This document shows, one piece after another, positions 30,985 to 52,178 of a stretch of 64,000 nt of DNA. Position numbers and translations under genes: made by a program. The number at the start of each line of letters is the position of its first letter. Position 1 is the first letter of the stretch. A model generated the notes under the pieces. It had not been told where the DNA came from and did no database searches. It saw nothing but the letters and a program-made list of their open reading frames with translations. Source of the stretch: Lachnospiraceae bacterium AC2028 (GTDB taxonomy: Bacteria > Bacillota > Clostridia > Lachnospirales > Lachnospiraceae); NCBI GenBank assembly GCA_000702685.1, contig JNJD01000009.1, positions 62,001 to 126,000 on the forward strand, read 5' to 3'.

Positions 30985-31946
30985 TGGCAAGTGTCAAACT
31001 GACCAAAGTTATCGAGAGGATGAACCTTACGAATCTCACTCCCGAAGTGGACGTAACGAGGATCCGCATAACCCAGCCCGATATCAACAGACCCGCTCTG
31101 CAGATCGCCGGTTACTTCGAATATTTCGATCCCGCGCGTATCCAGATCATCGGCTACGTTGAGTATTCCTATATGGAAAGTGCTCTGGACGATGCCCAGA
31201 AATACGAGGCATACGATAAATTCCTTGAGCATCCGATGCCCGCGATAATCTTCTGCAGAGGCCTTAAGCCTAATGACATCTTCATGGATGTTGCGAGAAA
31301 ATACGGCATTCCCGTTCTGCTCACCAATGAGGCGACATCGGGATTTACCGCAGATCTCATCAGATGGCTGAACGAGCAGCTGGCTCCCATGATCAGCGTT
31401 CACGGCGTTCTGGTCGACTGTTACGGTGAAGGCGTCCTGATCACGGGCGAGAGCGGTATCGGTAAATCCGAGGCGGCTCTGGAACTCATCAAGAGAGGAC
31501 ACCGTCTTGTTACAGACGATGCTGTCGAACTCAGGAAGCTTTCCGATACACTTCTTGTGGGAAGCGCACCCGATATCACCAAGCATTTCATCGAGCTCAG
31601 AGGTATCGGTATCGTTGATGTGAAGGCACTTTTCGGTGCATCGAGCGTCAAGGACCAGCAGCAGGTAGACCTCGTCATCAGACTTGAGGACTGGAACAAG
31701 GACAAGGATTACGACAGACTCGGACTTGAAGAGAACTTCACCGAATATCTCGGAGTAAGGGTCGTATGCCACAACATTCCCGTAAGACCCGGACGTAACC
31801 TTGCCGTCATATGCGAGACCGCAGCGGTCAACTACCGTCAGAAACAGATGGGTTACAATGCCGCTCAGGAACTTTATAAGAGAGTACAGTCATCCCTTGC
31901 GAAAAAGCGCGCAGAGGAAGAGGACGGAGAAGAAGGAGAATCATGA
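30984..31946 (+). CDS. hprK: HPr kinase/phosphorylase
   Basis: A 320-residue HPrK. The N-terminal domain is followed by the kinase domain with HGVLVD, Walker A GESGIGKS at 155-162, RLVTDDAVE, and the family signature GIGIVDVKALFG. It phosphorylates Ser46 of HPr or Crh using ATP or PPi and reverses the reaction, coupling glycolytic state to catabolite control. Both HPr-like proteins in this window keep that serine. It is flanked by thioredoxin and glucokinase genes and overlaps both. All catalytic residues I can check are present. Confidence 0.97.
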   Translation: MASVKLTKVIERMNLTNLTPEVDVTRIRITQPDINRPALQIAGYFEYFDPARIQIIGYVEYSYMESALDDAQKYEAYDKFLEHPMPAIIFCRGLKPNDIFMDVARKYGIPVLLTNEATSGFTADLIRWLNEQLAPMISVHGVLVDCYGEGVLITGESGIGKSEAALELIKRGHRLVTDDAVELRKLSDTLLVGSAPDITKHFIELRGIGIVDVKALFGASSVKDQQQVDLVIRLEDWNKDKDYDRLGLEENFTEYLGVRVVCHNIPVRPGRNLAVICETAAVNYRQKQMGYNAAQELYKRVQSSLAKKRAEEEDGEEGES

Positions 31947-32890
31947 AATACGTATTTGGTGCAGACATCGGCGGAACCACAGTAAAACTCGGACTTTTTG
32001 ACGACCGGATCAATCTGATCGATAAGTGGGAGATCCCCACCGATAAGAACGACAAGGGCAAGAACATCGTCGGAGACGTATGCGACAGCATCCTTGCGAA
32101 GATGCGGGAAAAAGGCATCGATAAGGCCGATTGCATCGGTGTGGGAGTAGGTGCTCCCGGAGCGGTTGACGAAGACGGCGTTATGACCGGCGGCGCAGTC
32201 AATCTCGGATGGGATGTATTCAATCTCAGGACCGCTATGGAGGAAAAACTCGGCGGTATAAAGGTCATCGCCGGAAATGACGCGAATGTCGCAGCATACG
32301 GCGAGATGATGAAGGGCGGCGGAAAGGGACATAAGAATGTCGTAGCCGTAACTCTCGGAACCGGCGTCGGCGGCGGTGTCATCATCGGCGGAAAGCTCAT
32401 CACGGGTTCTACGGGAGCTGCCGGAGAGATCGGACATATCAGGGTTGCCGACGGTGAAGAGGAAAAGTGCAACTGCGGACACACAGGATGTCTCGAGCAG
32501 TACGCATCCGCTACCGGTATCGCACGTCTTGCAAGAAGAAGACTTGCGAAGGACGATAAAGCATCCGTTCTCAGAAGTGCGGAGAACCTTGATGCAAAGG
32601 CGGTATTCGATGCGGTCAAGGCAGGTGACGAAGTTGCGATCGAGATCGCTCACGAATTCGGAAGCTATCTCGGAAAGGGACTTGCATCCGTTGCGGATGT
32701 CGTAAATCCCGAGATCTTCGTTATCGGAGGCGGAGTATCCAAGGCGGGAGATATCCTTCTTTCATTCGTTGCTCCGGAATTCGTCAATTACGTATTCCCT
32801 CCCTGTAAGGGAGCACAGTTCGCTCTCGCAACGCTCGGAAACGATGCGGGCATCTACGGATGTGCGGGAATGTTATTATCCGATATTTAA
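31943..32890 (+). CDS. glk: ROK family glucokinase
   Basis: A 315-residue ROK kinase: GADIGGTTVKLGLFD phosphate loop, GVGAPGAVDEDG, LGTGVGGGVIIGGKL, EIGHIRV and the zinc-binding CNCGHTGCLEQYAS motif. Such Firmicute enzymes phosphorylate glucose with ATP. Its position next to hprK matches the sugar-sensing theme: glucose freed by the intracellular glycosidases would enter glycolysis here without a phosphotransferase system. The start overlaps hprK by four bases (ATGA). Confidence 0.95.
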   Translation: MKYVFGADIGGTTVKLGLFDDRINLIDKWEIPTDKNDKGKNIVGDVCDSILAKMREKGIDKADCIGVGVGAPGAVDEDGVMTGGAVNLGWDVFNLRTAMEEKLGGIKVIAGNDANVAAYGEMMKGGGKGHKNVVAVTLGTGVGGGVIIGGKLITGSTGAAGEIGHIRVADGEEEKCNCGHTGCLEQYASATGIARLARRRLAKDDKASVLRSAENLDAKAVFDAVKAGDEVAIEIAHEFGSYLGKGLASVADVVNPEIFVIGGGVSKAGDILLSFVAPEFVNYVFPPCKGAQFALATLGNDAGIYGCAGMLLSDI

Positions 32891-32961: not shown

Positions 32962-33885
32962 ATGACCGGCAAGGAAATAGCGGCAATTTTAGCTGAACAT
33001 CTTGATGAAAGATATATCCATCCGGATTCTCCGATGTCCGATTGTACTTCATTCAGGACCGGAGGAAATGCTCTCTGTATAGTTGAAGTCCACAATGTCG
33101 AGGAACTCAGAAAGGTCCTCACTTGTGTCAGGAAGAAATTCCTTCCCTATTCGATACTCGGTAACGGAACCAATATCCTCGTTGAGGATGAGGGTTATTC
33201 GGGAGTATGCATAATGCTCCAGGGTGAATTCACCAAGGTGGATGTCACCGGATACGAGGTCACTGCAGGAGGCGGTGCATCACTTGCCGCTGCGGGACGT
33301 ATGGCAGCCGATATGTGGCTCACCGGAATGGAGTGGGCATGCGGAATCCCTGGAACCATCGGCGGTGCGATCAAGATGAACGCAGGCGCGTTCGGAAGCG
33401 AGATGAGCAACATAGTAAAGAGAGTAAAGGCTCTTACCACCGCAGGCGAGGAAGTTTTCCTCCGTCCCCACGAACTTCATTTCGGATACAGGACCTCACT
33501 CTTTTGTGAAAAGAAATACATCGTTCTCGAAGCGGTTTTCGAGCTTAAGAAGGGCGACAAGAACGAGATCAACGCAAATATCGAAAAGTATGCGAAGGAG
33601 CGCAGGGACAAGCAGCCCCTCGATCTTCCCAGCGCAGGATGCATCTTCAAGAATCCCAAGGATAATTTCGCTGCCAAGCTTATCGAGGAAGCCGGACTCG
33701 GCGGAGCACACGAAGGCGGCGCGATGGTATCCAAGAAGCACCACGGATTCATCGTCAATACCGGCAATGCAACAGCGGCAGATATTGTTAACCTTATGAA
33801 CAGGGTAAGGAACGAAGTTTACAAGAACAGCGGAGTACGTCTTGAGCCCGAACTCATCGTACTCGGAAGACCCGGAAGGTATTGA
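32962..33885 (+). CDS. murB: UDP-N-acetylenolpyruvoylglucosamine reductase
   Basis: A 307-residue FAD enzyme for the second step of UDP-MurNAc synthesis in peptidoglycan precursor formation. Seen are the FAD-binding GNGTNILVEDEGYSG, GMEWACGIPGTIGGAIKMNAGA, FGYRTSLF and PSAGCIFKNP. In the last motif Cys takes the place of the usual Ser proton donor, a change I believe occurs in other MurB proteins. Start ATG 32962 follows GAGGAG by five bases. It lies in the conserved murB-rapZ-whiA order. Confidence 0.95.
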   Translation: MTGKEIAAILAEHLDERYIHPDSPMSDCTSFRTGGNALCIVEVHNVEELRKVLTCVRKKFLPYSILGNGTNILVEDEGYSGVCIMLQGEFTKVDVTGYEVTAGGGASLAAAGRMAADMWLTGMEWACGIPGTIGGAIKMNAGAFGSEMSNIVKRVKALTTAGEEVFLRPHELHFGYRTSLFCEKKYIVLEAVFELKKGDKNEINANIEKYAKERRDKQPLDLPSAGCIFKNPKDNFAAKLIEEAGLGGAHEGGAMVSKKHHGFIVNTGNATAADIVNLMNRVRNEVYKNSGVRLEPELIVLGRPGRY

Positions 33886-33890
33886 TCTAA

Positions 33891-34751
33891 ATGCGGATAG
33901 TTATCATAACCGGAATGAGCGGAAGCGGTAAGAGGACCGGCATGAAAATGCTGGAGGATATCGGTTTTTACTGCATCGACAATCTTCCCGCATCGCTCGT
34001 TGACAAGTTCGTCGAACTGCTCGCACAGCCCGGCAACGAATATGACAAGGTCGCCCTCGGCATCGATATCCGTACCGCGGGTTCCATGAAGAATCTTGCA
34101 CAGGTCATAAAGAGCCTCAAATCCTCGGGACATGAGACCGAAGTTCTTTTCCTCGAAGCGTCCGATAAGACACTGATCCGCAGGTACAAGGAGACCAGAA
34201 GACTCCATCCTCTTGCGGGCGAGGGAACCATCGAAGACGGCATTAAGAAGGAACGTGCGGAGCTTCAGCCCATAAGGAAGCAGGCTACTTATATAATCGA
34301 CACCTCCAGCCTCCTGGTCAGGGATTTCAAGGCTGAGATCGATTCCATATTCCGTAAGAACGAAAAATACAGCAATCTCAACATCAACATTGTTTCATTC
34401 GGATTCAAGTACGGTATCCCCGCGGATGCCGATCTTGTGCTGGATGTGAGATTTCTTCCCAATCCCTTTTATATCGATGAACTGAAAAATAAGACCGGCC
34501 TCGATAAGGAAGTCAGGGACTATGTCTGCCAGTTTGAAGAGACGGGCAAGTTCCTTGATAAGCTCGAGGATATGCTGGATTTTCTGATCCCCAATTACGT
34601 CAAGGAAGGAAAATCCAATCTTGTCGTGGCCATAGGCTGCACGGGCGGAAAGCACAGATCCGTAACCCTGGCCTCCGAACTCTACGACAGAATGAAAAAG
34701 AGAACGGATATAGGCTTTAAGCTTACCCACAGGGATGTAACCGCAGGCTGA
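33891..34751 (+). CDS. rapZ: RapZ/YvcJ nucleotide-binding protein
   Basis: A 286-residue RapZ homologue: IVIITGMSGSGKRTGMKMLEDIGFYCIDNLP at the start, RRYKETRRLHPL in the middle, VSFGFKYGIPADADLVLDVRFLPNP and the C-terminal IGCTGGKHRSV RNA/metabolite-binding domain. In Enterobacteria RapZ controls GlmS through small RNAs; in Firmicutes YvcJ binds nucleotides and affects competence. The Walker A loop (8-15) reads GMSGSGKR: Arg stands where Ser or Thr normally binds magnesium. The gene follows murB after five bases. Confidence 0.94.
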   Translation: MRIVIITGMSGSGKRTGMKMLEDIGFYCIDNLPASLVDKFVELLAQPGNEYDKVALGIDIRTAGSMKNLAQVIKSLKSSGHETEVLFLEASDKTLIRRYKETRRLHPLAGEGTIEDGIKKERAELQPIRKQATYIIDTSSLLVRDFKAEIDSIFRKNEKYSNLNINIVSFGFKYGIPADADLVLDVRFLPNPFYIDELKNKTGLDKEVRDYVCQFEETGKFLDKLEDMLDFLIPNYVKEGKSNLVVAIGCTGGKHRSVTLASELYDRMKKRTDIGFKLTHRDVTAG

Positions 34752-34772
34752 TGATCGAAAAGGAGAGGCAAT

Positions 34773-35636
34773 ATGTCTTTTTCCTCGGATGTGAAGGAAG
34801 AACTGGCTGATGTCATCCCGCAGGCAAGGCATTGCAGGATAGCGGAAACAGCGGCGATAATGCACTTTTCCGGACGTATCGGAGTGGATAAAAACGGTGA
34901 GATCACCATCGGATTCGACACTTCGGGTTCTTCTCTGATAAAAAAAGGCTTTACTTTACTTGAAATAACATTTAAGATAGGGAAGTCGCTGAAAAGTACC
35001 GACCCGGAGTTCGAGGCCCTGCTTGATATCATGGGAGCCGATGATGAACCGGTATCGGGACTCATCCTCAAGAATGCGTGCTGTAAAAGGGCATTTTTAA
35101 GAGGAGCGTTTCTTGCATCGGGTTCACTGAGCGACCCGGACAAGGGTTACCATCTTGAGTTCGTATGTCCGTCGGAAGCACTTGCGGACCAGGTCGCATC
35201 GGTCTGTGCGGATTTCGAGATCAACGCCCGCAAGACGGAAAGACGCGGAGAGCAGGTAGTCTACGTCAAAGAAGGCGAGATGATCGGCGAGCTTCTGAAT
35301 GTCATGGGAGCGATGAACTCCTACATGGAATTCGAGAACTGCCGTATCTATAAGGATGTCAGCAATACGGTCAACCGAAGGGTCAACTGTGAGACATCCA
35401 ATATAAGGAAGACTGTGACCGCTGCTTCAAGGCAGCTGGAAGATATAAGATTTCTGGAAGAGCACGGAATGCTGGACGGCTTGCCCGCACCCTTAAGGGA
35501 AGCGGCATACGGAAGGCTTGAAAATCCGGATGCGACCTTGCAGGAGCTCGGAGAGATGATGGATCCTCCGGTCGGGAAATCGGGTATCAATCACAGACTT
35601 GCCAGACTGAGCAAGATCGCTCAGGAGAAAAGATAA
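34773..35636 (+). CDS. whiA: DNA-binding protein WhiA
   Basis: A 287-residue WhiA: N-terminal homing-endonuclease-like fold (MSFSSDVKEELADVIP, RGAFLASGSLSDPDKGYHLEF) and C-terminal helix-turn-helix (LREAAYGRLENPDATLQELGEMM, then PPVGKSGINHRL). In actinomycetes it controls sporulation cell division; in Bacillus it influences division and chromosome segregation. It is somewhat shorter than the usual 310-330 residues. AGGAGAGGC precedes the ATG. The order rapZ-whiA-HPr gene is typical for Firmicutes. Confidence 0.95.
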   Translation: MSFSSDVKEELADVIPQARHCRIAETAAIMHFSGRIGVDKNGEITIGFDTSGSSLIKKGFTLLEITFKIGKSLKSTDPEFEALLDIMGADDEPVSGLILKNACCKRAFLRGAFLASGSLSDPDKGYHLEFVCPSEALADQVASVCADFEINARKTERRGEQVVYVKEGEMIGELLNVMGAMNSYMEFENCRIYKDVSNTVNRRVNCETSNIRKTVTAASRQLEDIRFLEEHGMLDGLPAPLREAAYGRLENPDATLQELGEMMDPPVGKSGINHRLARLSKIAQEKR

Positions 35637-35748
35637 AAACGGCTTGGGGTGCCGTCAGGATTTACGGGGGAATATTGATTTAGCCTTGTGAGGAGAAGGC
35701 TGCCGCCATCTATTGGGGAGGATGCGGTATGAAGGGAGTAATATTTTT

Positions 35749-36009
35749 ATGATCACAAGAACCGTAAACGTTAAACTGCCCAAGAATCTTTCTGCCAGCC
35801 CCGTCGCACTTCTTGTTCAGAAAGCAAGCAAGTTCGACAGCATCATCTATATCGAAGCGGGCGAAAGAAAAGTCAACGCAAAGTCCATCATGGGTATGAT
35901 GAGCATCACTCTCGATGAGGGAGAAGAGCTTATGATCAGATGTGACGGTGACGATGAAGGAGCCGCACTCGATACCGTAGAGGGCTTCCTTACCGGTGTT
36001 CAGGCCTGA
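35749..36009 (+). CDS. HPr-family protein lacking His15 (Crh-like)
   Basis: An 86-residue HPr homologue. Aligned to Bacillus HPr, the phosphocarrier motif HARP at 15-18 reads SASP, so the PTS phosphoacceptor His15 is Ser and Arg17 is Ser. The regulatory site is intact: NAKSIMGMMSI with Ser exactly at 46. It therefore cannot pass phosphate from EI to EIIA but can be phosphorylated by the HprK encoded 4 kb upstream, like Bacillus Crh (which has Gln15). Start ATG 35749 follows GGGAG by ten bases. A strong terminator follows and ends the long operon. Confidence 0.93.
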   Translation: MITRTVNVKLPKNLSASPVALLVQKASKFDSIIYIEAGERKVNAKSIMGMMSITLDEGEELMIRCDGDDEGAALDTVEGFLTGVQA

Positions 36010-51947: not shown

Positions 51948-52178
51948 ATGAAAACAGTAAAGATTTCTCTTAATTCAATTGACAAGGTAAAGAGTTTTGT
52001 AAACGATATCACCAAGTTCGAATATGACTTCGATCTTGTATCCGGAAGATACGTAATCGACGCTAAGTCCATCATGGGTATCTTCAGCCTCGATCTTTCC
52101 AAGCCCATCGACCTCAACATCCACACCGAGGGCGGAGCTGATGATGTTCTCGAGGTTCTTAAGCAGTATCAGGTATAA
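51948..52178 (+). CDS. Small HPr-like protein without the PTS histidine
   Basis: A 76-residue HPr-fold protein. The phosphoserine region is strongly conserved: VIDAKSIMGIFSLDLSKP, with Ser41 aligned to HPr Ser46. The first helix region reads NSIDKVKSF with no His or HARP motif, so it cannot be a PTS phosphocarrier. It is shorter than HPr (usually 85-88). It has a consensus promoter, an ideal ribosome site and its own terminator, so it is probably abundant. The likely role is a HprK target and co-regulator, inferred from the serine motif. Confidence 0.88.
   Translation: MKTVKISLNSIDKVKSFVNDITKFEYDFDLVSGRYVIDAKSIMGIFSLDLSKPIDLNIHTEGGADDVLEVLKQYQV

What the first reader, a model, noticed from the sequence alone, without database searches (positions are those of the whole stretch)
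35749..36009. HPr at the whiA locus has Ser15 instead of His15
HARP is SASP while Ser46 and its KSIMG context are intact, and an apparently complete HprK lies in the same operon. The protein looks converted from PTS carrier to a regulator only, parallel to Bacillus Crh (Gln15) but at the standard HPr locus. With an ATP-dependent glucokinase next to hprK this suggests sugar uptake without a PTS.
Basis: partly seen in the sequence, partly recalled or inferred. Interest (0 to 1): 0.62.

Follow-up and report, generated by a model that had tools for sequence, protein, structure and literature searches.

The report
Crh-like HPr regulator lacking His15
A small relative of the sugar-transport phosphocarrier HPr has lost its sugar-phosphate histidine and probably acts only as a regulator, as Crh does in Bacillus; this is ordinary for gut and rumen Lachnospiraceae, only the replacement residue (serine) is unusual, and the same genome keeps a normal HPr and enzyme I but no detectable PTS sugar permease.

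Summary
In detail: window 35749-36009 (+) encodes an 86-aa HPr-fold protein with Ser at position 15, Ser at 17, no histidine at all, and an intact KSIMG Ser46 site, in an hprK-glk-murB-rapZ-whiA operon. The evolutionary reading needs correction. The whiA locus is where Bacillus keeps crh. In the 80 best whiA-linked relatives (Lachnospiraceae and near kin) residue 15 is never His (65 Glu, 10 Asp, 2 Gln, 1 Ser, 1 Val, 1 Gly). Ser15 is a fixed, purifying-selected substitution in one half of an uncultured genus, nested inside Glu15 sequences. So this is not a fresh conversion of a PTS carrier but a variant of a Lachnospiraceae-wide Crh-like protein. The genome also has a separate His15 HPr and a complete enzyme I, so the phosphoryl chain is not lost; yet the PTS permease and EIIA families tested are absent, so 'no PTS uptake' is probably right. 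Most likely role: substrate of HprK at Ser46, reporting glycolytic state to a CcpA-like LacI protein and/or methylglyoxal synthase; targets are inferred. A specialist would find it mildly interesting.

The parts
35749..36009 (+). Crh-like HPr-family protein, 86 aa, Ser15, Ser17, Ser46 (KSIMG), no His
   Evidence: AlphaFold model pLDDT 90.6, HPr fold
35732..35738 (+). ribosome-binding site AAGGGAG of the Crh-like gene
   Evidence: read directly
30987..31946 (+). hprK, HPr kinase/phosphorylase, complete
   Evidence: TIGR00679 364 bits against cut-off 240; full-length match to the HPr kinase/phosphatase structure 1ko7
31943..32890 (+). glk, ROK-family glucokinase
   Evidence: TIGR00744 307.5 bits, cut-off 260
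32962..33885 (+). murB
33891..34751 (+). rapZ (yvcJ)
34773..35636 (+). whiA (yvcL)
   Evidence: TIGR00647 244 bits
36025..36052 (+). terminator-like hairpin with T run right after the Crh-like gene, suggesting it ends the operon
   Evidence: one of 4 such matches where about 5 are expected by chance, so its position and 12-pair stem are the argument

Best explanation
It is a Crh-like, regulation-only HPr paralogue. HprK from the same operon would phosphorylate Ser46 when glycolytic intermediates and ATP are high, and reverse this when they are low. It cannot take phosphate from enzyme I because it has no His. In its P-Ser or free form it would bind a partner: most likely a CcpA-like LacI regulator (candidate L068, which keeps the residue aligned to the CcpA phosphoserine-binding Arg and has Arg at the aligned Lys) and/or methylglyoxal synthase, as in Bacillus. 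PTS phosphotransfer belongs to the separate His15 HPr with EI. Shown here: sequence, synteny, conservation, phylogeny, purifying selection, presence of HprK, EI, His15-HPr and MgsA genes. Inferred: phosphorylation, partner and output.
For: No His, KSIMG intact. HPr fold predicted, matching Crh, HPr and the Asp15 Ruminiclostridium protein 7ff5. 80 of 80 relatives from the collection scan lack His15, and 79 of 80 have whiA just upstream, most with murB, rapZ and hprK or glk as well. S15 clade 100/99, nested in Glu15 sequences, also with residue 15 masked (99/98). dN/dS median 0.06 in the S15 clade; Ser15 kept while its third codon base varies. Complete HprK. Separate His15 HPr plus full EI. MgsA gene present. 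L068 alignment to CcpA.
Against: No biochemical evidence. No gene passes the CcpA equivalog cut-off (best 120 bits against 442), though that model is strict (over cut-off in only 2 of 14 control genomes). Arg17, conserved in Crh and most relatives, is Ser here, so a Crh-type CcpA contact may be altered. MgsA is widespread and its presence proves little.
Confidence: 0.78

Rival explanations
1. It works like Crh through HprK, but does not use CcpA: with Arg17 and the acidic residue 15 both gone, its partner interface has changed and it acts on an enzyme or another regulator (MgsA, RapZ, WhiA or unknown).
For: SASP replaces EARP in this clade and EASP occurs in its closest relatives; no CcpA above cut-off; MgsA present in 29 of 31 genus genomes.
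Against: A LacI protein with CcpA-like phosphoserine-contact positions exists (L068); partner identity is untested.
Confidence: 0.35
2. It is a degenerating duplicate with no function.
For: Loss of His15 and Arg17; a His15 HPr exists elsewhere.
Against: dN/dS about 0.06, 60 of 86 positions invariant in the S15 clade, conserved operon position.
Confidence: 0.03
3. Ser15 is itself a phosphorylation site, giving a second regulatory input in place of the His15 phosphate that Glu/Asp15 may mimic in relatives.
For: Relatives overwhelmingly have acidic residue 15 (75 of 80), which resembles the His15Asp phosphomimetic used in PMC3526391; a Ser could switch.
Against: No kinase known for that site; purely inferred.
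Confidence: 0.1
4. It is still a PTS carrier using another residue.
For: EI and HPr genes are present in the genome.
Against: The protein has no histidine; a dedicated His15 HPr exists.
Confidence: 0.02

Closest known systems
Bacillus subtilis Crh
   Same: HPr fold, no His15, Ser46 in KSIMG, gene directly after whiA (yvcL) in an operon with rapZ (yvcJ); best PDB sequence match (1zvv)
   Different: Gln15-Arg17 there, Ser15-Ser17 here; 43% identity; glmR (yvcK) is absent from this operon and hprK, glk, murB are present; scores 81.9 bits against 123 for the closest equivalog model NF010354
Glu15/Asp15 whiA-linked HPr-like proteins of Lachnospiraceae
   Same: same operon, same Ser46 site, about 50-60% identity, no His15
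   Different: acidic residue 15, and usually Arg17, instead of Ser15-Ser17
Ruminiclostridium cellulolyticum phosphocarrier 7FF5
   Same: solved HPr-family structure with Asp15 and a KS46 site
   Different: 40% identity; its genomic context was not examined here
PTS HPr (ptsH), e.g. B. subtilis
   Same: fold and Ser46 site
   Different: no His15

Membership tests
Crh (catabolite repression HPr) | HPr fold | tested here: met
Crh (catabolite repression HPr) | His15 replaced, no PEP-dependent phosphorylation site | tested here: met
   Ser15, no His in the protein
Crh (catabolite repression HPr) | Ser46 in an HprK recognition context | tested here: met
   NAKSIMGMM
Crh (catabolite repression HPr) | gene follows whiA/yvcL in the rapZ-whiA operon | tested here: met
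   B. subtilis order from PMC6171935
Crh (catabolite repression HPr) | score above the closest curated equivalog model (NF010354) | tested here: not met
   81.9 against 123 bits; so called Crh-like, not Bacillus Crh
Crh (catabolite repression HPr) | same clade as Bacillus Crh | tested here: inconclusive
   AU test p=0.46, one or two losses of His cannot be told apart
Crh (catabolite repression HPr) | phosphorylated by HprK; P-Ser form co-represses with CcpA | not testable with these tools
   needs biochemistry; CcpA orthologue not clear
HPr phosphocarrier of the PTS | His15 phosphoacceptor | tested here: not met

The most novel reading that the evidence does not exclude
In this genus the PTS has been reduced to EI, a His15 HPr with a changed Ser46 context (KSVLSVL) and two His-less HPr paralogues with KSIMG, with no sugar permease at all: the HPr family has been split into separate 'His' and 'Ser' signalling proteins, and Ser15 marks a changed partner interface.
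Probability: 0.25. Interest if true: 0.55.

Novelty: new variant of a known kind. Interest (0 to 1): 0.3.

Why it matters
It shows that His-less, HprK-type HPr proteins are the rule at whiA across Lachnospiraceae, not a Bacillus oddity, so 'phosphocarrier' labels on them are misleading. The genome offers a natural case where HPr's transport and regulatory roles sit on different proteins and where EI and HPr persist without any detected permease, so the regulatory role can be tested alone.

Tried and rejected
CcpA by equivalog model: no clear orthologue; the best-scoring LacI (L064) lacks the CcpA-like Arg/Lys positions, L068 has Arg/Arg there. One or two origins of His loss: unresolved. Papers on 7FF5/7FF4 and on PTS loss in rumen Lachnospiraceae: none found in the held library. 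The eight PF02378 matches in the genus looked like permeases at first, but the two examined are EIIC-EAL fusions.

Full report
OBSERVATION. The 86-aa frame at 35749-36009 is real, well started (AAGGGAG ten bases before ATG) and is an HPr-family protein. The protein holds no histidine, so no other alignment can supply a functional His. The predicted structure is a confident HPr fold (pLDDT 90.6) whose best solved matches include HPr, Crh and the Asp15 protein of Ruminiclostridium cellulolyticum. The operon is hprK-glk-murB-rapZ-whiA-crh-like, ending in a terminator-like hairpin. HprK is complete.

First, whiA is the crh neighbourhood: B. [quoted passage not shown] Second, the His was not lost here. 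In all 30 best matches among 149 genomes of the family (29 besides the window itself) and in the 80 best of a collection scan that selected only on the KSIMG region, the protein next to whiA has Glu (65 of 80), Asp (10), Gln (2), Val, Gly or Ser, never His. Loci that do have His at whiA occur elsewhere in the phylum (L154, L167, L173), so His was probably present at this locus at some earlier time; whether Lachnospiraceae and Bacillus lost it once or twice is not resolved (AU p 0.46). Third, the phosphoryl chain is present: a His15 HPr at C10:188478 (L001) beside glmM, and a 561-aa EI with N-terminal, mobile and PEP-binding domains, TSH and CGE motifs, over the TIGR01417 cut-off.

THE SER15 CLADE. 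In the window's genus (31 genomes; named relatives are mostly rumen and gut metagenome assemblies) 16 genomes have SASP and 13 have Glu15 (EASP or EARP); two gave no whiA-linked copy. The Ser15 proteins form one clade (100/99), nested in Glu15 sequences of the genus, and remain so with residue 15 masked (99/98). Glu to Ser (GAR to TCN) needs at least two base changes. Within the clade dN/dS is about 0.06 and Ser15 is kept with TCT, TCA and TCC codons. So the change is old, fixed and under selection.

PTS STATUS. No PTS_EIIC (PF02378) and no EIIA_2 (PF00359) in the genome; no EIIA-man/DhaM (PF03610) in any of the 31 genus genomes. Since the Glc, Fru and Lac classes need PF02378, the mannose class and DhaM need PF03610, and the ascorbate/galactitol classes normally use PF00359 (general knowledge), a working permease is unlikely; PF00358, PF02255, PF03611 and PF03609 themselves were not searched. 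Eight genus genomes have PF02378 matches; the two read are fusions of EIIC to an EAL phosphodiesterase domain beside a histidine kinase, more like sensors than transporters. EI is found in 30 of 31 genus genomes, in several next to a 1-phosphofructokinase-like gene.

MECHANISM. Best supported: HprK phosphorylates Ser46, EI cannot phosphorylate this protein, and the Ser46 state is read by a partner. In Bacillus, Crh acts with CcpA and free Crh inhibits MgsA (PMC9631020, PMC13130090). MgsA is present. No protein passes the CcpA cut-off, but the LacI protein L068 aligns to CcpA with Arg kept and Lys replaced by Arg at the positions that I know, from memory of the CcpA/P-Ser-HPr structure, as phosphoserine contacts. 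Because Arg17 is lost here, the partner interface may differ. The second His-less paralogue (window 51948-52178) and the altered Ser46 context of the His15 HPr (AKSVLSVL) suggest, without proof, that HprK's substrates here are mainly the KSIMG proteins.

VERDICT. Crh-like by function and synteny; not filed as Bacillus Crh (equivalog score not met). A variant of a known kind, of modest interest.

Noticed in passing
window 51948-52178 (+): A third HPr-family protein, 76 aa, lacks the whole His15 loop but keeps DAKSIMGIFSLDL; Pfam PTS-HPr 24.6 bits, just over cut-off. Possible second HprK substrate.
   Followed up: partly
L001 1498-1761 (G000:C10:188478): The genome's His15 HPr has a changed Ser46 context (AKSVLSVLGA instead of KSIMG) and lies next to glmM.
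   Followed up: partly
L004 181-2791 (G000:C7): Complete enzyme I overlapping a 1-phosphofructokinase-like gene, with no fructose EII found: may be what remains of a fructose PTS operon.
   Followed up: partly
L152 373-2493 and L153 394-2505 (same genus): Fusions of a PTS EIIC membrane domain to an EAL domain beside a histidine kinase; looks like a sugar-sensing c-di-GMP phosphodiesterase. PF02378 matches occur in 7 of 13 Glu15 genomes but 1 of 16 Ser15 genomes (Fisher p 0.01, relatedness and completeness not corrected).
   Followed up: partly
window 13219, 26330, 37020, 43941: Repeated palindromic element TCACGGGGACTGTCCCCGTGA and variants, 4 copies (8 strand matches, 0.02 expected), one reaching into the first codons of the long frame of ftsH.
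   Followed up: partly
window 33891-35636: glmR (yvcK), which lies between rapZ and whiA in B. subtilis, is missing from this operon; rapZ is followed directly by whiA.
   Followed up: no
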